Positions 16,148 to 64,000 of a DNA stretch of 64,000 nt are shown here, one piece after another. Under the pieces are notes generated by a model. It was not told the origin of the DNA. It was given only the letters and a program-made list of their open reading frames with translations, and made no database searches. This stretch comes from a virus. Each line of letters opens with the position of its first letter. Position 1 is the first letter of the stretch. The position numbers were made by a program, and so were the translations under genes. The stretch is from the IMG/VR virus record IMGVR_UViG_3300032070_000613, positions 62,001-126,000 of that record. The stretch is one strand, 5' to 3'.

Positions 16148-19100
16148 ATGGCTATCAATCAAGGTGAAAATGTATCGACGTCCTATGAGGGTAGTGGGTA
16201 TGCTTTCGATAAAGTTTATTTTCAGCCTGGGAAGCCTATTCTCAGCTCTGAATTGAATTTATCACAGGAGCAGCTCGAGACACTGACTCAGAAATCCACG
16301 GCGCATATGCCGTCCGGATGGCTCAGCTATCGTCCTATCTATACCGCCAAAGATCTCGGGAACAGTTTCTATACGCAGGACCCTGACGCTCCCAAGCCCG
16401 AGGTGGCTCTGGTGAATGGATGGCCTGTGTATGTCACGAATACCAATACTCCTTTAAAGCATATAAATAAAATATCGTTTGATGATAATGATCTCCGCTC
16501 CGGGTCTCGTGTGGATGGAGTGTTTCTGGAGGTATGGAGATCTCTCATATCTCCTCAGGATTCATCTGAGACAGTCGATGGTACAGTAAAACCCCAGCCG
16601 ATAGTGAGAGTGAGTACTCTCAATAGTGTGTGGATCTACAATGAAAACATCGGGTGGTCGGTAGGAGAGAACGGTACTATTCTGAAAACCATCGATGGAG
16701 GCAACAACTGGAAAACCATAAACACTCCCATCAATGTCAATTTCAAAAAAGTAAAATTTCTGGATTTGGATATAGGCTATGCCGTATCTGATAAAGGGCA
16801 TATCATCAAGAGTGTGGATAGTGGTGAGTCCTGGTTTTCATTAGATACTCCTATCACGGATGATCTGAATGATTTGTATATCATAGATGCTCAACATGTC
16901 TGCGTGGTCGGCAATAATGGTACCATACTGCTGTCGATTGATGGTACGCATTTCAATTTGGTATCTCAGACCGCGGGTAACATTGATAATCTGTATGGAG
17001 TGACTTTTTTTGATACCTCGGTGGGATGGACGGTGGGAGACAACGGTGCCCTACTGATGACGAAAGATGGGGGAAACTCCTGGCAGAAATATATCGTCAA
17101 CGATTCATCTACCAGCACGGTAATCACCGAGAAACTGCTGTCTGTAGCTTTTTACAATCTGAATGACGGTATCATAGTGGGAGCCGATGGTCTGCTGCTG
17201 CGGTCTACCGACAGTGGATTCACGTGGGCTAATATGTCATCGAGGATATGGCATGATGGGTCATATCAGACTATACAGGAGATATTCCCGGGTAGCACTA
17301 TAGATTTCAACAGAGTGTTTATCAGGGAAGAGTTTCCGATACGTTTTACTATCGCGGTATATCCTGACTCTAAGAATTTTTTCAAAAATCTGCTGTATAA
17401 GATATCTCCCACGAACTATCCGAACTCTCTGGTTTTGGAGTTCACGGGGACGCAGGATAATATCAACTACGTAAAAGTCCTCGATCTGGATAGCTACGCT
17501 ACCTCAGAAGCCCTACGGGATGCTATCAACAATCTGACGAGCGCCTATAGAGCGGACGACGCCTCGCTGCCTGATGTGCAGCGTCAGAAGGTGCGCGTAT
17601 TCGAGGCCTCTATAGAATATGAATCTTTCTCCAAACCGTCTGATTTCCGGCCTACGTCGGGGAGTTTCTCCAGTATCAATCCTGCGCAGATATCTTTTTC
17701 CGTAGAGGATAAAGCATGGATAGCTGGCAGCAATGGAGTAGCTCTCGTCAGCAGCAACAGTGGATCTAAATGGGAGGTCCTCGACCTCAGCACGGGATAT
17801 GATTTACAGGATGCGTATTTTGTATCGGATACCAAAGGATGGTTTTCGGGGGCCCAGGGCACTATCATAGGCTATGACGGTGGACTAGTCTCCCCCATAG
17901 AGACGCAGAGTACTGATCTGATCACCAGAGTGCAGGGTAGAATTTTCCCAGAGGGTAACGTACTCTCCATGGCTGAAGATTATTTGAAAGATAATATCAT
18001 AGATCCTCAGGTGGGTGTAGAGACTACCAAGAGAGTGCAGATACAGTATAGGATCAGGATAGTCAGCGGTATAGATCCTTTTAATCATCCTGAGGCTGGG
18101 CTGGGGCATGACTACGTGTATAGTATGGGTCCTAGCACCAGTGTGACCTCCGCAGGTAACTATACCTTTACGAATATGGGTCAGGAGAATGGGGACTATG
18201 GTCTCTGGCGTGCCCGGTGTCGGAGTACGTATGATGGGTATAGCTGGGCCATACCGATGTTTTTTGTTTCTCGCAGGAACTCAGGTGCTTTCAATGTCGA
18301 TAACAATATCAACGGGTCCACCTATTTTGATCTGAGTGCTATACGTCCTGATGGATTGACGTACGAGCAGATCACTGATGATGATGTGACTGACATACGC
18401 AGGCAGGTGGTCATACAATCTTATAGTCATTTTCTGCAGAAAAATCTGGAGAAGCTGCTATCGAATAATCTCAAAACTAGTCTGAGTGATAAAGATCAAC
18501 GGGGTCTGCAGTATGGTACCTCTATTTTGATGGCTGATCAATATACCGGTACTACAGATATTGAAAATCTCGTCCGAGGAGGAGTGTCTTCAGCCGCGGT
18601 CATCGTGGAGGATCAGAAACTGCTGGACCCGAATATACAGATCACGGAGGCGGAGCTGACATTCGGACCGCGGGATAACGGTCTGTATCATAATGACCCG
18701 GCATATTATAGTGCCTATGTAGTGAGGGACGGTACGCCTACAGCGGAGCCTGTGCAAGGTACGTGGGAAGGGCTGGGCACGAATACGGTCATTTTTCATA
18801 TAGCTGATAATTTCACTCCAGCGGGTGGGACTCTGGATGGGATACAGTATCAGGTGACTGCTCATTACATTGATTACTCTCGTGTAGGTCTCACGAGAGT
18901 GCCGCAGACTCCCATATCCGTGAAGTATCAAGCGGATCCTGTAAACTCTGCTCAGACCTATTATTTCAATGGTGTGGATGCTCGTGGTGATAGGCGGATA
19001 CTCGAGTATCTGACTGAGAATGTGTCTGGGTATATGGATTATACGTATATCTATTCCGCCAAAACGGTACTCGATAATGTACAGGATCAGAATCTTTATG

Positions 19101-36363: not shown

Positions 36364-38064
36364 ATGAATATAGATCCTCGTCATATTAAGCAAATATCAG
36401 ATACTAAGGCAACATTATCTGGTGCTGGTCCAAAAAGATTAAAAAAGAAGCAGATCGCTATTCAAGAAGATCTCTCTGCTAAAAGATTGTCTTTCAGAAC
36501 ATCTCTGAATGAATATGTCGAATGCGCAAATGTAGCTGATGCCACAGGCATTACCGGTCCTGCTGGTATACCAGGACCTACAGGGCCCTCAGCGGGTCCT
36601 CAGGGAGATACAGGATTACCAGGTCCTACGGGTATAGCAGGGACTTATGGGTTAACAGGATTGCCAGGGATACAGGGGCCTACAGGAGCTTTTGGTGGTG
36701 CTCCTGGAGAGACAGGATTGCTTGGGGCTACTGGCGTCCGCGGCATGACAGGTATTAACGGTCTTATAGGCAGTACTGGATCGCAAGGTTTAACGGGTGC
36801 GTCTGGTGTGACAGGTATTTCTGGAGTGACTGGTGATCAAGGAAATACGGGCGTCCAAGGTTTAACTGGTTCTCAAGGAGCTACTGGAGTATCTGGCGTT
36901 ACAGGATTGTTTGGTGTGACTGGAGATCAGGGGAATACAGGAGTACAGGGTGCGACTGGTGTAGGTCTGCAAGGAGTCACAGGAATTGGTGTCACAGGTC
37001 TCAGTGGGGTAACCGGCTCTCGAGGAGAGACGGGATCTCAGGGTCTCACCGGATTGATTGGAATCACAGGGCTCGAAGGGAGTACGGGTGTCCAGGGAAT
37101 AACTGGTGAACCTGGTTTGACCGGTATGCCTGGAATCACTGGTCAACAAGGCGCACAAGGGCTCACAGGTATCATAGGGATTACAGGAGCTCTTGGGACT
37201 ACAGGTTTTGTAGGAATTACAGGTTTTCAGGGAATAACAGGTCTGCAAGGATCCCAAGGGATAACTGGAGAACAGGGTGCTACAGGAGCTCTTGGGACTA
37301 CAGGTTATATAGGAATCACGGGTCAACAGGGAGCTCAGGGGCTCACAGGTGTTATTGGGCTGACCGGATCTCAAGGCATTACGGGAGAGCCTGGTCTAAC
37401 AGGAATTTTAGGCATTACAGGGATTGTTGGAGTTCAAGGTTTAACGGGAGATCAGGGATCTCAAGGATTGACTGGTACTATTGGATTAACAGGAACTATT
37501 GGAATTACAGGACAGCAGGGAGTATTTGGATTAACGGGATATGCTGGTATCACAGGTCCTGAGGGAGCTGGTGGTAATACGGGAGCACAGGGAGTAACTG
37601 GGAATCAAGGAGAAACAGGAGCTGGAATTCAAGGATCGACGGGATTGCGGGGATCAACCGGGATGTCTGGTATTGGTAGTGCAGGAGGCGTCACAGGAAT
37701 GATCAATATCACATTCAACGGTAATAGCAATCCTGTGTCTACAGGCGAAAAAACCATAATAAATCTACCGTTTAATTTACAGCTGGATGGCTGGAGATTT
37801 CTAGCGAATGCGACAGGGAGTATTTCTGTTGATATGGCCATCTCTAGCTATACTAATTATCCTTTTACAGGGCCTCTTATGCATGCCGGTTCTACAGGTC
37901 CTTATATATCTGCTGGAATAAAAAATGAAGATACAGATCTGAGTGATTGGGTTAATGCAACGGGAGCGGCAGGAGAACTAATCAGAGTTAGTGTAGGATC
38001 CGTGACAGGGATTTCTATGGCATATCTTTCTTTAAATTATCATCAACTCTATAATGTCATTTAA
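36364..38064 (+). CDS. long collagen-like (Gly-X-Thr) tail fibre protein
   Basis: A 566-residue protein. A 60-residue basic N-terminus is followed by roughly 380 residues of Gly-X-Y repeats, mostly with Thr or Gln in the Y position (GITGLQGVTG style), to about residue 445, then a compact C-terminal beta domain (NLPFNLQLDGWRFLANATGS). Thr in the Y position is typical of bacterial and phage collagen-like proteins that can be O-glycosylated. The start has AAAGGAG upstream. It likely forms a trimeric fibre shaft with a C-terminal tip. Its TAA stop falls inside the left hairpin of the IscB element. Confidence 0.75.
   Translation: MNIDPRHIKQISDTKATLSGAGPKRLKKKQIAIQEDLSAKRLSFRTSLNEYVECANVADATGITGPAGIPGPTGPSAGPQGDTGLPGPTGIAGTYGLTGLPGIQGPTGAFGGAPGETGLLGATGVRGMTGINGLIGSTGSQGLTGASGVTGISGVTGDQGNTGVQGLTGSQGATGVSGVTGLFGVTGDQGNTGVQGATGVGLQGVTGIGVTGLSGVTGSRGETGSQGLTGLIGITGLEGSTGVQGITGEPGLTGMPGITGQQGAQGLTGIIGITGALGTTGFVGITGFQGITGLQGSQGITGEQGATGALGTTGYIGITGQQGAQGLTGVIGLTGSQGITGEPGLTGILGITGIVGVQGLTGDQGSQGLTGTIGLTGTIGITGQQGVFGLTGYAGITGPEGAGGNTGAQGVTGNQGETGAGIQGSTGLRGSTGMSGIGSAGGVTGMINITFNGNSNPVSTGEKTIINLPFNLQLDGWRFLANATGSISVDMAISSYTNYPFTGPLMHAGSTGPYISAGIKNEDTDLSDWVNATGAAGELIRVSVGSVTGISMAYLSLNYHQLYNVI
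37184..37330 (+). repeat. internal duplication in the collagen-coding region
   Basis: A segment reading ACAGGAGCTCTTGGGACTAC begins near 37184 and again near 37283, and each copy runs on into closely similar sequence. This indicates slippage or recombination that changes stalk length by about 33 residues. Confidence 0.5.
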
Positions 38065-38079
38065 AAATGACGTTGTGGG
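38048..38079 (+). other. left-boundary hairpin of IscB copy 1
   Basis: TCTATAATGTCAT (38048-38060) can pair with ATGACGTTGTGGG (38067-38079), 13 pairs including four G-U pairs. All four become Watson-Crick pairs in copy 2. The fibre gene's TAA stop (38062-38064) lies in the loop. Confidence 0.6.
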
Positions 38080-38251
38080 AGTCTAGGGAGCTTATTCAAT
38101 AAAATGAATATGCAGACGTTACAACCAAAGTTCAAGAACGTACCTACGGATGCTTCACTAGTCCGTAGCTCTACAACTCTACCATTAAACAGGAACGAAA
38201 GCGCCAGTGTGGTAGAGAAAGTACTGAGTTGTAACAATCCCGAAGTGAATC
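38048..38251 (+). ncRNA. putative omega RNA (HEARO-like) scaffold, copy 1
   Basis: This segment lies just upstream of and overlaps the 5' part of the iscB frame, where IscB guide RNAs are encoded. Foldable stems: GCTTATTCA/TGAATATGC (38090-38098 with 38105-38113, one mismatch), ACGTT/AACGT (38116-38120 with 38137-38141), CTACGGA/TCCGTAG (38144-38150 with 38162-38168), and CTCTACCA/TGGTAGAG (38177-38184 with 38210-38217) enclosed by ACAA/TTGT. Over 38080-38251 it differs from copy 2 at only three bases; two are in a loop and one turns a G-C pair into G-U. In IscB systems the guide is the sequence directly 5' of the scaffold, here inside the 3' end of the fibre gene. Confidence 0.75.
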
Positions 38252-39462
38252 TACGGAAACAGGTATCCGGACTTACAGTCATTGTACCTGTACTCTCTTT
38301 GGAGGGGAGTCCTCTAATGCCGTGCACTCCAGTTAAAGCACGGCACCTTTTAGAAAAAAGGAGAGCCCATGTCGTAAAACTAAATCCTTTTATTATTAGA
38401 TTGAATTTCAAGTGTGAAAGCATAGTTCAGGAAATCAGTTTCGGAATGGATGCCGGATACAAAAATATTGGATATTCAGCGATTACAGATACAAAAGAAA
38501 TTTTATCAGGTGAAATAGCTCTGGATAATAAAACTAAAAGCAGAATGAACGAAAGAAAAATGTATAGAAGAAATAGAAGGTATCGTCTGAGGTATAGAAA
38601 ACCAAGATTCGATAATAGGGTAAAACCCGAGGGATGGCTCCCTCCCTCTATAAAGAGAAAATTTGATACCCATATAAATTTCATAAAAGGGCTCAAAAAA
38701 ATGTTACCTATCAAAAAGGTCACAGTTGAGATAGGAAATTTTGATATTCAAAAGATAGAGAATCCCGATATCTCTGGAGTCCAGTATCAGCAGGGTGATT
38801 TATACGGGTATTATAATTTGAAACTCTATCTTTTGGAGAGGGAAAAAGGAAAGTGTCAACTCTGCGGGAAAAAATTCACTAAAGAAAATAAACCCCACAT
38901 GCACCATATAAAACAAAGGAGTGAGGGTGGTACTAGTAGAGCTGAGGGTATCGCTCTTATACATAAAAGTTGTCATGAAGATTTGCATAAGAAAAAATTA
39001 TTTCATAAATTGAAACCAGCTAAAGCTTATAAAGCAGAAACTTTTATGTCTATAGTTGGAGGGATGTTCAAGAAATTTTTAGATTGTGATGTTACTTACG
39101 GATATGAGACGTGTGCTAAAAGAAAAGAGTTAGGTTTAGAGAAATCTCATGTGAATGATGCCTTTGTTATAGCCGGAGGGACTATTCAAACTAGATGCCT
39201 ACCTAGTATGATAGAGCAAAAGAGAATTAATAACAGGACTCTGCAGACGAATAGAAAAGGTTTTTCTTCTTCTATTAGGAAACAGAGGCATAAAATACAA
39301 AATAGAGATTTTATTTGGATTAGTGGTAAAAAATATTTGAGTGGAGGCGTGGCTAGTAGAGGGACTCAGGTATATTATTTTGATGGGAGTGAGAAGAAAC
39401 TCATCCCTTCTAAAAAGATTGAAAAAATTTATAATACTGATAATTTGATTTGGCTAGATTAA
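38104..39462 (+). CDS. iscB: IscB-like RNA-guided HNH/RuvC nuclease, copy 1
   Basis: The open frame starts at 38104 but its first part overlaps the RNA scaffold. IscB homology (VPVLSLEGSPLMPC, the PLMP motif) begins near residue 60, so translation more likely starts at GTG 38245 or at ATG 38317, which has GGAG seven bases upstream, conserved in copy 2. Motifs (numbered from 38104): RuvC-I FGMDAGYKNIGYSAI (D116), Arg-rich bridge helix 155-168, RuvC-II VEIGNFD (E209) followed by SGVQYQQGDLYG, HNH with CQLC (251-254), HMHH (265-268) and CH (290-291), RuvC-III HVNDAF (H349, D352), and a C-terminal domain. The Asn usual in the HNH loop appears replaced (EGIAL). Predicted to cut DNA guided by the adjacent RNA. 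From 38317 it has 381 residues, a normal size. Confidence 0.85.
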   Translation: MNMQTLQPKFKNVPTDASLVRSSTTLPLNRNESASVVEKVLSCNNPEVNLRKQVSGLTVIVPVLSLEGSPLMPCTPVKARHLLEKRRAHVVKLNPFIIRLNFKCESIVQEISFGMDAGYKNIGYSAITDTKEILSGEIALDNKTKSRMNERKMYRRNRRYRLRYRKPRFDNRVKPEGWLPPSIKRKFDTHINFIKGLKKMLPIKKVTVEIGNFDIQKIENPDISGVQYQQGDLYGYYNLKLYLLEREKGKCQLCGKKFTKENKPHMHHIKQRSEGGTSRAEGIALIHKSCHEDLHKKKLFHKLKPAKAYKAETFMSIVGGMFKKFLDCDVTYGYETCAKRKELGLEKSHVNDAFVIAGGTIQTRCLPSMIEQKRINNRTLQTNRKGFSSSIRKQRHKIQNRDFIWISGKKYLSGGVASRGTQVYYFDGSEKKLIPSKKIEKIYNTDNLIWLD

Positions 39463-39476
39463 ATGTCGTTATAGAG
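39461..39476 (+). repeat. right-end sequence of IscB copy 1
   Basis: AAATGTCGTTATAGAG follows the iscB stop. Its reverse complement matches 38047-38062 at 14 of 16 positions; it also resembles the hairpin right arm AAATGACGTTGTGGGAG (38065-38081) in direct orientation. Probably marks the element's right end. Confidence 0.45.
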
Positions 39477-39487
39477 TTAAAAACAAT

Positions 39488-61952: not shown

Positions 61953-62464
61953 CATACTATACCGGGGTCGGCTCTCGTCAAACGCCTACAGATATCTCAA
62001 CCCTAATGACCGACATCGCTAAATTTCTTAGCGAGACTGGTTATGTTTTGAGATCGGGTGGAGCGAAGGGGGCCGATTCTTTTTTTGAAGCGGGCGTATC
62101 AGACCCGACAAAGAAAGAGATTTATCTCCCGTGGAAAGATTTTAATGGCAATAAATCCCCTCTGTTCAGAGTCACGGATGAAGCCCTCAAACTGGCTAGC
62201 AAATACCATCCTGCATGGAATAAATTATCCTACGGAGCTCGCAAGCTCATGGGCCGTAATGGCTATCAGGTCCTGGGATCTAATTTGAAAACTCCGAGTA
62301 ATTTTTTGATAGTCTGGACAGAGGATGGAAAAGAAATAGGCGGGACCGCTCAGGCTATGAGAATAGCTAAAGACTATAAAATACCTGTGTATAATTTATT
62401 TTTTGAAGAATGCAGAAATTTAATGAATTATTGGATAGCCAATAAAAAAGTAAAAATAGTATGA
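61949..62464 (+). CDS. SLOG-family (DprA/LOG-like) nucleotide-binding protein
   Basis: A 171-residue Rossmann-like protein. YTGVGSRQTP at the start and LRSGGAKGADSFFEAG fit the SLOG superfamily (DprA, LOG, TRPM-type), whose loops bind nucleotides or nucleotide-derived ligands. Many phages carry such small proteins of uncertain role. It is coupled by ATGA overlaps to both neighbours. Without the DprA C-terminal domain it is not a standard DprA. Confidence 0.6.
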   Translation: MTYYTGVGSRQTPTDISTLMTDIAKFLSETGYVLRSGGAKGADSFFEAGVSDPTKKEIYLPWKDFNGNKSPLFRVTDEALKLASKYHPAWNKLSYGARKLMGRNGYQVLGSNLKTPSNFLIVWTEDGKEIGGTAQAMRIAKDYKIPVYNLFFEECRNLMNYWIANKKVKIV

Positions 62465-63627
62465 CCGATGAAATAGACATCAGTGACATCCTGGAAGATG
62501 AGGTGGAGGAGAGTCCCGCTCAATCCCAAGTGACTCCGGCTATCCCCGACTCTCCAGACAGCCCCGCCCGGAAAGAAATAGCGCAGCTGAGAGATCGTCT
62601 GAGAGTATCTCACGAGCACTGCCGTGATCTTTTCGTGGATATGAGGACTGTGGACTACATAGCTACTCCCGATGACTCCTATATCGAATTTCTGGATAAA
62701 AATTATTACGACAAAAGGCTGTATTTTAAAGTGGACCCTCAGAGACCGAATGATCCTAAAATCATAATAGCCCAGCAGCAATTTTGCAAGCTGCTAGGTA
62801 TCCCCTATAAATTTTTTGCCGCTAACAGGCCCTCCCTGAAAATGAACATCGTGAAGACCTGGCAGGCAGGCCTGACCGCGGATGAGAGTAAAGCCCAGAG
62901 CGTCCTCAAAATTCGGGAGTCTAAAGATTGCTCTATCATCAGAGCATTCATACCAGTAACTAAATGCTGCGTACCTCTCTATGAACTCATAGACATAATC
63001 CTGAATGGCGTGACTATCCCTCTCACAATGGAGTTCGTGTACGGGGATGAAAGGGATGATTTGATATTACACGCCCGTTTTCTTTTTAACAAAGAATATA
63101 CGGTACTGGGATCTAAGGTGTGCGTGGGATTTTCTTTGATAGCGTCTGAGCTGGATGCCTCCCCATTCATAATAGAAATCTTTTTACATGATAAAGAGTT
63201 TGCAACTTCGTATATTAGTACATATGGCGGGGACCCCTTTTTCAAGTCTAAATATGACGGTATCAAAGCGGATCAAATTAAAGATCTGATCCCTAAAATG
63301 TTAAACAGAATCGATAGTGAAGCTCCCGAAATGATAGAAAGGGTAGAGAAGAAAGTATCCGATACTATGCAGAGCGGATTTTTTTGTGCGGAAACTGAGT
63401 GCGTATCGCTACTGAAAGCTAAGGGTATCAACGGCAAAGTGAAAAAAGCGGTATATCATCAGATTACTGAGTGCCAGGATAAAATCAAAACTCCCTGGGA
63501 TATTGCTCGTCACGTGGGTCTGGTGGCTAAAGATTTAGATTCGATAAAGAGGCTCGCTGTAGAGCGGGCTATAGGTCAATATTTGCGACTAACTTTTTCT
63601 AACCCTACAACGTCATATAAAAAATGA
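62461..63627 (+). CDS. DUF932-like conserved phage protein
   Basis: A 388-residue protein. After an acidic N-terminus, a FCKLLGIPYKFFAANRPSLK segment and the following helical and beta parts resemble DUF932/phage-plasmid proteins of unknown function. It ends with TGA inside the sequence AAATGA, which is also the boundary of the second IscB element; the last residues (PTTSYKK) lie in the left hairpin arm. This raises the possibility that the normal C-terminus or coupling to a downstream gene was changed by insertion. Confidence 0.5.
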   Translation: MTDEIDISDILEDEVEESPAQSQVTPAIPDSPDSPARKEIAQLRDRLRVSHEHCRDLFVDMRTVDYIATPDDSYIEFLDKNYYDKRLYFKVDPQRPNDPKIIIAQQQFCKLLGIPYKFFAANRPSLKMNIVKTWQAGLTADESKAQSVLKIRESKDCSIIRAFIPVTKCCVPLYELIDIILNGVTIPLTMEFVYGDERDDLILHARFLFNKEYTVLGSKVCVGFSLIASELDASPFIIEIFLHDKEFATSYISTYGGDPFFKSKYDGIKADQIKDLIPKMLNRIDSEAPEMIERVEKKVSDTMQSGFFCAETECVSLLKAKGINGKVKKAVYHQITECQDKIKTPWDIARHVGLVAKDLDSIKRLAVERAIGQYLRLTFSNPTTSYKK

Positions 63628-63636
63628 CGATGTAGG
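63604..63636 (+). other. left-boundary hairpin of IscB copy 2
   Basis: CCTACAACGTCAT (63604-63616) pairs with ATGACGATGTAGG (63624-63636), 12 of 13 Watson-Crick pairs with one A-A mismatch. The DUF932-like gene's TGA stop is at 63625-63627 in the right arm. Confidence 0.65.
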
Positions 63637-63808
63637 AGTCTAGGGAGCTTATTCAGTAACATGAATATGCAGACGTTACAACCAAAGTTCAAGAACGTAC
63701 CTACGGATGCTTCACTAGTCTGTAGCTCTACAACTCTACCATTAAACAGGAACGAAAGCGCCAGTGTGGTAGAGAAAGTACTGAGTTGTAACAATCCCGA
63801 AGTGAATC
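63604..63808 (+). ncRNA. putative omega RNA (HEARO-like) scaffold, copy 2
   Basis: Almost the same sequence as copy 1: over 63637-63808 only three bases differ. All stems listed for copy 1 are kept; the base at 63721 is T instead of C and makes a G-U pair in the CTACGGA/TCTGTAG stem. The sequence just 5' of it (end of the DUF932-like gene) would supply the guide and differs from that of copy 1, as expected of a mobile guide-RNA system. Confidence 0.75.
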
Positions 63809-64000
63809 TTCACTGGAAACGGGTATCCGGACTTAAAGTCATTGTACCCGTACTCTCTTTAAAAAGGAGTCCTTTAATGCCTTGCGGTTTGATCAAAGCT
63901 CGTCACTTAATTAAAGGAGGTAAAGCAAAAGTAGTTAAACTGAACCCACTAGTCATTCAGCTTAAATTTGACTGTGAAAACCAGATCCAAGATGTTTCTT
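63661..64000 (+). CDS. iscB: IscB-like nuclease, copy 2, N-terminal part (cut by window edge)
   Basis: The frame is open to the window end. It contains the PLMP motif region (VIVPVLSLKRSPLMPC) followed by IKARHLIKGGKAKVVKLNP, the usual IscB N-terminus; the RuvC and HNH motifs would lie beyond the edge. The ATG at 63877 has AAGGAG seven bases upstream; the earlier frame overlaps the RNA scaffold. The coding part aligned with copy 1 after that ATG agrees at about 70 of 123 bases by hand count, so it is a diverged paralogue rather than a recent duplicate. Confidence 0.75.
   Translation, partial: MNMQTLQPKFKNVPTDASLVCSSTTLPLNRNESASVVEKVLSCNNPEVNLHWKRVSGLKVIVPVLSLKRSPLMPCGLIKARHLIKGGKAKVVKLNPLVIQLKFDCENQIQDVS

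What the first reader, a model, noticed from the sequence alone, without database searches (positions are those of the whole stretch)
38080..38251. RNA scaffold almost identical between two loci while their nucleases diverge
By hand alignment, 172 scaffold bases (38080-38251 vs 63637-63808) differ at 3 sites, but the neighbouring coding sequence (38317 and 63877 onward) agrees at only about 57% of 123 bases. Such a contrast suggests strong selection on a shared RNA, recent gene conversion of the RNA alone, or one RNA serving two nucleases.
Basis: seen in the sequence. Interest (0 to 1): 0.9.

Follow-up and report, generated by a model that had tools for sequence, protein, structure and literature searches.

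The report
Phage IscB copies sharing one guide-RNA scaffold
A phage carries two old, diverged copies of a Cas9-like RNA-guided nuclease (IscB) whose guide-RNA scaffolds have recently been made almost identical again, plus a third scaffold with no nuclease, so several guides probably share two enzymes.

Summary
The scaffold is a HEARO/omegaRNA (RF02033) and the gene an IscB with RuvC and HNH domains. With the rest of copy 2 fetched, the IscB genes are 71% (DNA) and 67% (protein) identical.

The RNA is not the only conserved part. The last quarter of the gene (39236 onward) is also 85-87% identical, so both ends match and the middle has diverged. Among 325 pairs from 26 IscB loci, this pair ranks first for RNA and for C-terminus. 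Relatives with similar central divergence have RNAs averaging 71% identity (maximum 88%). Constraint alone therefore fails. Concerted evolution (recombination or gene conversion) fits best, because trees keep the two copies as sisters in every part.

A third, complete scaffold (about 88%) with no nuclease lies at G000:137431-137680, behind a sigma-70-like promoter.

Unexpected: in 25 of 26 loci the IscB reading frame stays open through the omegaRNA from a conserved ATGCAG, so the RNA probably doubles as the 5' coding sequence.

Best reading: mobile, homing-type OMEGA elements sharing scaffolds in trans. Sharing and cleavage are untested.

The parts
38029..38045 (+). Putative guide segment of copy 1 (~17 nt immediately 5' of the guide-adaptor hairpin; lies in the 3' end of the upstream fibre-like gene 36364-38064)
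   Evidence: Position by analogy with OgeuIscB (guide of ~16-17 nt directly 5' of the guide adaptor hairpin, PMC9640706); sequence. Inferred.
38046..38082 (+). Guide-adaptor hairpin (stem loop 1) of copy 1; its 5' strand is also the left terminal inverted repeat of the element
   Evidence: 16-bp stem in the fold; compensatory and G-U changes between copies 1-3.
38083..38251 (+). omegaRNA scaffold core of copy 1 (HEARO RF02033; Rfam match 38069-38254, 88.7 bits)
38259..38292 (+). 3' terminal hairpin of the omegaRNA (CAGGTA...TACCTG; CGGGTA...TACCCG in copy 2), overlapping the IscB frame
   Evidence: homology between copies 1 and 3 runs to 38293 and stops there.
38110..39462 (+). iscB copy 1. 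Frame open from inside the RNA (in-frame ATG 38104 and ATGCAG 38110); PLMP-motif Met at 38317, which also has a Shine-Dalgarno-like GGAGG
   Evidence: RRXRR + HNH; best PDB relatives are IscBs; frame conservation in 25 of 26 loci.
38301..39235 (+). Diverged central part (67% against copy 2)
39236..39462 (+). Second homogenised tract: C-terminal region after RuvC-III, corresponding by position to the WED/TAM-interacting domains
   Evidence: domain placement inferred from the alignment to OgeuIscB ending near its residue 377 and from PMC9640706.
39459..39477 (+). Right terminal inverted repeat of copy 1 (TTAAATGTCGTTATAGAGT; 17 of 19 match the reverse complement of the left end)
   Evidence: BLAST hits on the opposite strand.
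63585..63601 (+). Putative guide segment of copy 2 (3' end of gene 62461-63627), unrelated to the copy 1 guide
   Evidence: Inferred.
63602..63639 (+). Guide-adaptor hairpin of copy 2
63640..63808 (+). omegaRNA scaffold core of copy 2 (Rfam match 63587-63812, 85.4 bits)
63667..64000 (+). iscB copy 2, start (continues to G000:C1:127022, outside the window); PLMP Met at 63877

Best explanation
These are two copies of a phage-borne OMEGA element: a HEARO omegaRNA followed by, and probably overlapping in frame with, an IscB RNA-guided nuclease. The copies are old sisters whose nuclease cores have drifted far apart. Their RNA scaffold and C-terminal region (which by position reads the guide-adaptor hairpin and the TAM) have been made alike again by recombination between the copies, i.e. 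concerted evolution. Each copy has its own guide, taken from its insertion site. Because the scaffolds are nearly identical, either IscB can probably load any of the three RNAs, including the third, nuclease-less one, which has its own promoter-like site. The likely role is homing or gene drive: the RNP cuts alleles of the insertion site that lack the element (in co-infecting phages or sister genomes) and repair copies the element in. Shown: IscB and HEARO identity, the mosaic, the sister relationship, RNA fold conservation, the third copy. Inferred: conversion as the process, cross-loading, guides, cutting, homing.
For: HEARO at both loci above the gathering score and at the third. RRXRR and HNH domains, IscB as best solved relatives by sequence and by fold; catalytic E151 (RuvC) and H210 (HNH) invariant. 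RNA 98.2% against centre 66.8% (z = 3.9) and C-terminus 87.0% (z = 5.0), both rank 1 of 325 pairs. In the C-terminus codons of shared residues are also more often identical (27/35 and 24/32, against about half elsewhere), which points away from protein selection. Copies 1 and 2 are sisters in trees of the centre (98/93), C-terminus (97/95) and RNA (94/83), with path lengths of about 0.82, 0.19 and 0.02. All 43 bases of one of the family's most variable stems are identical in copies 1 and 2, while copy 3 keeps that stem by compensatory changes. Copy 3 lies behind TTGACA-17-TATATT. Mobility: in another phage (L018) an IscB element sits between homologues of two neighbouring G000 genes that have no element between them in G000.
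Against: No related genome of the same phage species was found, so conversion tracts cannot be polarised and no empty allele of copies 1 or 2 was seen. The hairpin strands and terminal repeats are not homogenised (72-90%), so the exchange was not of whole elements. No guide target outside the elements was found in the genome or in IMG/VR (copy 3 only). The HNH Asn that is conserved in 24 of 26 loci is G in copy 1 and D in copy 2, so HNH cutting may be weakened. No Y1 transposase in the record. Nothing was tested biochemically.
Confidence: 0.62

Rival explanations
1. Purifying selection alone: the RNA evolves so slowly that two old copies still match.
For: The fold is strongly constrained (96.6% of cells paired, covariation far above shuffles), and the RNA is usually more conserved than the gene in this family.
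Against: 133 pairs with comparable central identity have RNAs averaging 70.6% and never above 88.4%; copies 1 and 2 are identical in a fast-evolving stem; constraint does not explain the second homogenised tract at the 3' end of the gene.
Confidence: 0.07
2. Recent duplication of one whole element, followed by replacement of the central part of one copy by a foreign IscB core.
For: Gives the same pattern of similar ends and a different middle. One recombination event would do it.
Against: In the centre tree copies 1 and 2 are still sisters (98/93). The ends do not share one age: RNA 98-99%, C-terminal tract 85-87%, terminal repeats 72-83%.
Confidence: 0.15
3. Assembly artefact: the metagenome assembler merged similar repeats, so the identity is not real.
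For: The sequence is an IMG/VR record, and identical runs (88 bases) are shorter than a read pair.
Against: The RNAs keep their own differences and unique flanks, the third copy is kept distinct at about 88%, and the second tract (85-87%) is too different to be a merge.
Confidence: 0.05
4. About the third copy only: the nuclease-less RNA is a deletion relic, or an RNA decoy against other IscB-like or CRISPR systems, rather than a trans-acting guide.
For: It lies in an RNA cluster with two CRISPR-repeat-like units, resembling the RNA anti-CRISPR solitary repeats of PMC10651486; its reading frame is still open, as expected after a recent deletion (read from the sequence).
Against: It keeps the complete fold with compensatory changes, extends exactly to the end of the terminal hairpin, and has its own promoter-like site. 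A decoy role is not excluded.
Confidence: 0.35

Closest known systems
IscB / HEARO OMEGA systems (OgeuIscB, TbaIscB, OrufIscB)
   Same: RRXRR/PLMP N-terminus, RuvC and HNH, HEARO omegaRNA at the 5' side, guide position, fold (PMC9640706; PMC9755519).
   Different: Phage-borne; guide-adaptor hairpin of a different sequence without the inner hairpin of the relatives; frame open through the RNA; two IscBs and three RNAs in one genome with homogenised ends; HNH Asn lost in both copies.
TnpB/IscB homing and gene drive of IS200/IS605 elements
   Same: A nuclease whose guide records the insertion site would cut element-free sites (PMC11870625 for TnpB). Occupied against empty site seen between phages here.
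   Different: No Y1 transposase in the phage; 19-bp terminal inverted repeats; drive not shown.
Stand-alone omegaRNAs reported near IscB families in bacteria (own knowledge, Altae-Tran et al. 2021; paper not held)
   Same: Scaffold without an adjacent nuclease.
   Different: Here in a phage, in an RNA cluster with a promoter-like start.
RNA anti-CRISPRs (solitary repeat units, PMC10651486)
   Same: Two I-C-like repeats beside copy 3 resemble solitary repeat units.
   Different: The omegaRNA itself is not a CRISPR repeat; no inhibition shown.

Membership tests
IscB (HEARO/OMEGA) | PLMP/RRXRR N-terminal region | tested here: met
   Pfam RRXRR 2e-59 and 3e-56; PLMP motif at 38311-38322.
IscB (HEARO/OMEGA) | RuvC-I/II/III catalytic residues | tested here: met
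   D58, E151, H291, D294 invariant across the family alignments; E151 aligned with OgeuIscB E193.
IscB (HEARO/OMEGA) | HNH domain with catalytic His | tested here: met
   Pfam HNH; H209/H210 invariant (H210 aligned with H247). The conserved Asn of the motif is G or D in these two copies only.
IscB (HEARO/OMEGA) | HEARO omegaRNA directly 5' of the gene | tested here: met
   RF02033 above the gathering score at both loci; pair covariation.
IscB (HEARO/OMEGA) | IscB fold | tested here: met
   AlphaFold model, mean pLDDT 82; top PDB matches are IscB complexes, TM-scores about 0.6.
IscB (HEARO/OMEGA) | RNA-guided DNA cleavage next to a TAM | not testable with these tools
   Needs biochemistry. Both right flanks (TAAAAA) would fit an NNRR-type TAM; inference only.
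IS200/IS605 (ISC) transposon | Y1 transposase in cis | tested here: not met
   PF01797 absent from the record. HEAROs are often without one (PMC9755519).
Homing element | Element absent from the corresponding site in a relative | tested here: inconclusive
   Met for the L018 element (empty in G000); no relative found for the sites of copies 1 and 2.

The most novel reading that the evidence does not exclude
The phage runs a small multi-guide OMEGA system: two IscBs and three interchangeable omegaRNAs kept compatible by concerted evolution, one of them a dedicated trans-acting RNA gene in an RNA cluster, and the scaffold is at the same time the first ~60 codons of IscB, so that folding as guide and being translated exclude each other.
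Probability: 0.35. Interest if true: 0.82.

Novelty: new variant of a known kind. Interest (0 to 1): 0.6.

Why it matters
It is a natural case in which guide scaffold and RNA-reading domain are kept in step while the nuclease core drifts, which bears on how single-guide OMEGA systems could become multi-guide systems like CRISPR. The frame conservation through the omegaRNA also bears on practice: in at least one IscB survey N-terminal insertions were removed by choosing a downstream start (PMC13180657), yet in 25 of 26 loci here the frame through the RNA is preserved.

Tried and rejected
Guide inside the hairpin: I first read GTCAT..ATGAC as the guide; comparison with relatives and OgeuIscB shows it is the guide-adaptor hairpin, with the guide upstream. 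Element ends as a host hairpin or terminator repeat: no other copies in the genome, and L009 and L011 share similar left ends. Empty sites for copies 1 and 2: no relatives of the 388-aa neighbour or of the ligase in IMG/VR, nor of the 388-aa neighbour in reference phages. Exact core pattern in IMG/VR: none. Copy 3 guide as an 18-mer in IMG/VR: none. Guide self-targets: none with clear support. Within-genome comparison in other phages: the other viral records tested carry one HEARO or one RRXRR each. HEARO in the order of the one bacterial hit: 1 of 295 genomes. First structure model was poor (mean pLDDT 57.5) and was replaced. Primary HEARO/OMEGA/ISC papers not held.

Full report
Observation. 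The window is bases 62001-126000 of a 141,095-base viral record, G000. Both stretches are HEARO RNAs, RF02033, above the gathering score, and the genes are IscB: Pfam RRXRR and HNH, best solved relatives nearly all IscB or IsrB by sequence and IscB by fold (model mean pLDDT 82).

Complete copy 2 and a third copy. Copy 2 continues to G000:127022. The genes are 71.0% (DNA) and 67.4% (protein) identical. A third RNA at G000:137431-137680 has no nuclease behind it. It is about 88% identical to copy 1 over 249 bases. Outside one stem it is about 95% identical to copy 1, and that stem is changed on both sides so that the pairs remain. It has a TTGACA-17-TATATT site about 45 bases upstream of its hairpin (L008:15857-15885). 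The scan finds more promoter-like sites here than in shuffles (14 against 6.1), so this is suggestive only.

What the contrast is. The similarity is a mosaic: 93.4% at 38046-38300, 67.1% at 38301-39235 and 84.9% at 39236-39486 (best segmentation). I compared 26 loci from phages and one bacterial metagenome assembly. Among 325 pairs, copy 1 and copy 2 have the largest excess of RNA identity over central identity (z = 3.9) and the largest excess of C-terminal identity (z = 5.0). The 133 pairs with comparable centres have RNA identity 0.71 +/- 0.08, maximum 0.88. The pairs are not independent, so the z-scores rank rather than test. Codons of shared residues are also more alike in the C-terminal tract. 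In trees the two copies are sisters in every part, but with path lengths of about 0.82 (centre), 0.19 (C-terminus) and 0.02 (RNA). This is what old duplicates with later exchange of both ends would look like. The outermost hairpin strands and terminal repeats are less alike (72-90%), so whole elements were not exchanged.

RNA anatomy. By comparison with OgeuIscB (guide of ~16-17 nt, then a 14-bp guide adaptor hairpin, then the scaffold; PMC9640706) the hairpin at 38046-38082 is the guide adaptor. In most relatives it has the form GTCAACTACC...GAGTTGAT with an inner hairpin. Here, and in L009 and L011, it is a plain stem of other sequence. Its strands change together between the copies. The core has 33 consensus pairs, 22 with changes on both sides, with 96.6% of cells paired and no shuffle reaching the observed covariation. 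The 5' strand of the hairpin is also 17/19 identical to the reverse complement of the right end of the element in both copies.

The reading frame runs through the RNA. From a conserved ATGCAG in the scaffold the IscB frame is open to PLMP in 25 of 26 loci. The distance varies (207 to 231 bases to the PLMP Met) but is a multiple of three in the same 25; the other two frames have stops in all 26. Several loci have AGGA-type sites just before ATGCAG. A second architecture (L022, L055, L068, L070, L082 among others) has a start beside PLMP and the frame closes within a few codons upstream. I infer that in this group IscB is often or always started inside the omegaRNA. In copies 1 and 2 the PLMP Met also has a Shine-Dalgarno-like GGAG, so both starts remain possible here.

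Function. Both guides would come from the 3' end of the upstream gene. An L018 element occupies a gene junction that is empty in G000, which shows movement between phage sites. No Y1 transposase is present. Homing by RNA-guided cutting and repair is therefore the most likely role, by analogy with TnpB drive (PMC11870625), and sharing of RNAs in trans is likely but untested. The conserved HNH Asn is lost in these two copies only; whether this makes them nickases cannot be told.

Novelty. IscB, HEARO and (from own knowledge) stand-alone omegaRNAs are known kinds. The combination here (three scaffolds, two nucleases, concerted ends, in a phage) and the frame through the RNA were not found in the papers I could search, which is a limited library.

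Noticed in passing
L008:15857-17062 (G000:C1:137357-138562): RNA cluster: promoter-like site, nuclease-less omegaRNA, four structured units with shared flanks (ATCCTTTAYCG..GGGCTTACAT ... AAGCAC..ACAACTCGGAT), and a long hairpin followed by a T-run at the end. No Rfam family above its cut-off except HEARO; a 20-base motif of the units is not in IMG/VR.
   Followed up: partly
L008:16680-16709 and 16764-16793: Two type I-C-like CRISPR repeats (GTCGCTC..GAGCGTGGATTGAAAC) followed by stretches that resemble each other (77% over 82 nt), so not a normal array; similar to solitary repeat units or RNA anti-CRISPRs (PMC10651486).
   Followed up: partly
L008:16885-16965: tRNA-like sequence with the 3' half before the 5' half (permuted); weak YrlA and tRNA matches, not called by ARAGORN.
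   Followed up: no
L026 (G000:C1:5428-7083): Third RRXRR protein of this phage, with DUF7487 and no HNH; IsrB-like, with a frame open far upstream of PLMP.
   Followed up: partly
window 38317-39462 and L008:4377-5522: The Asn of the HNH motif, conserved in the other 24 loci, is Gly in copy 1 and Asp in copy 2.
   Followed up: partly
L018:3476-5230 against G000:C1:46306-47773: IscB element present between two homologous genes in one phage and absent in the other: an occupied and empty site pair.
   Followed up: partly
window 36364-38064: Collagen-like fibre gene (G-x-T-G repeats) whose last codons and stop come from the left end of the IscB element; the same holds for gene 62461-63627 at copy 2.
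   Followed up: no
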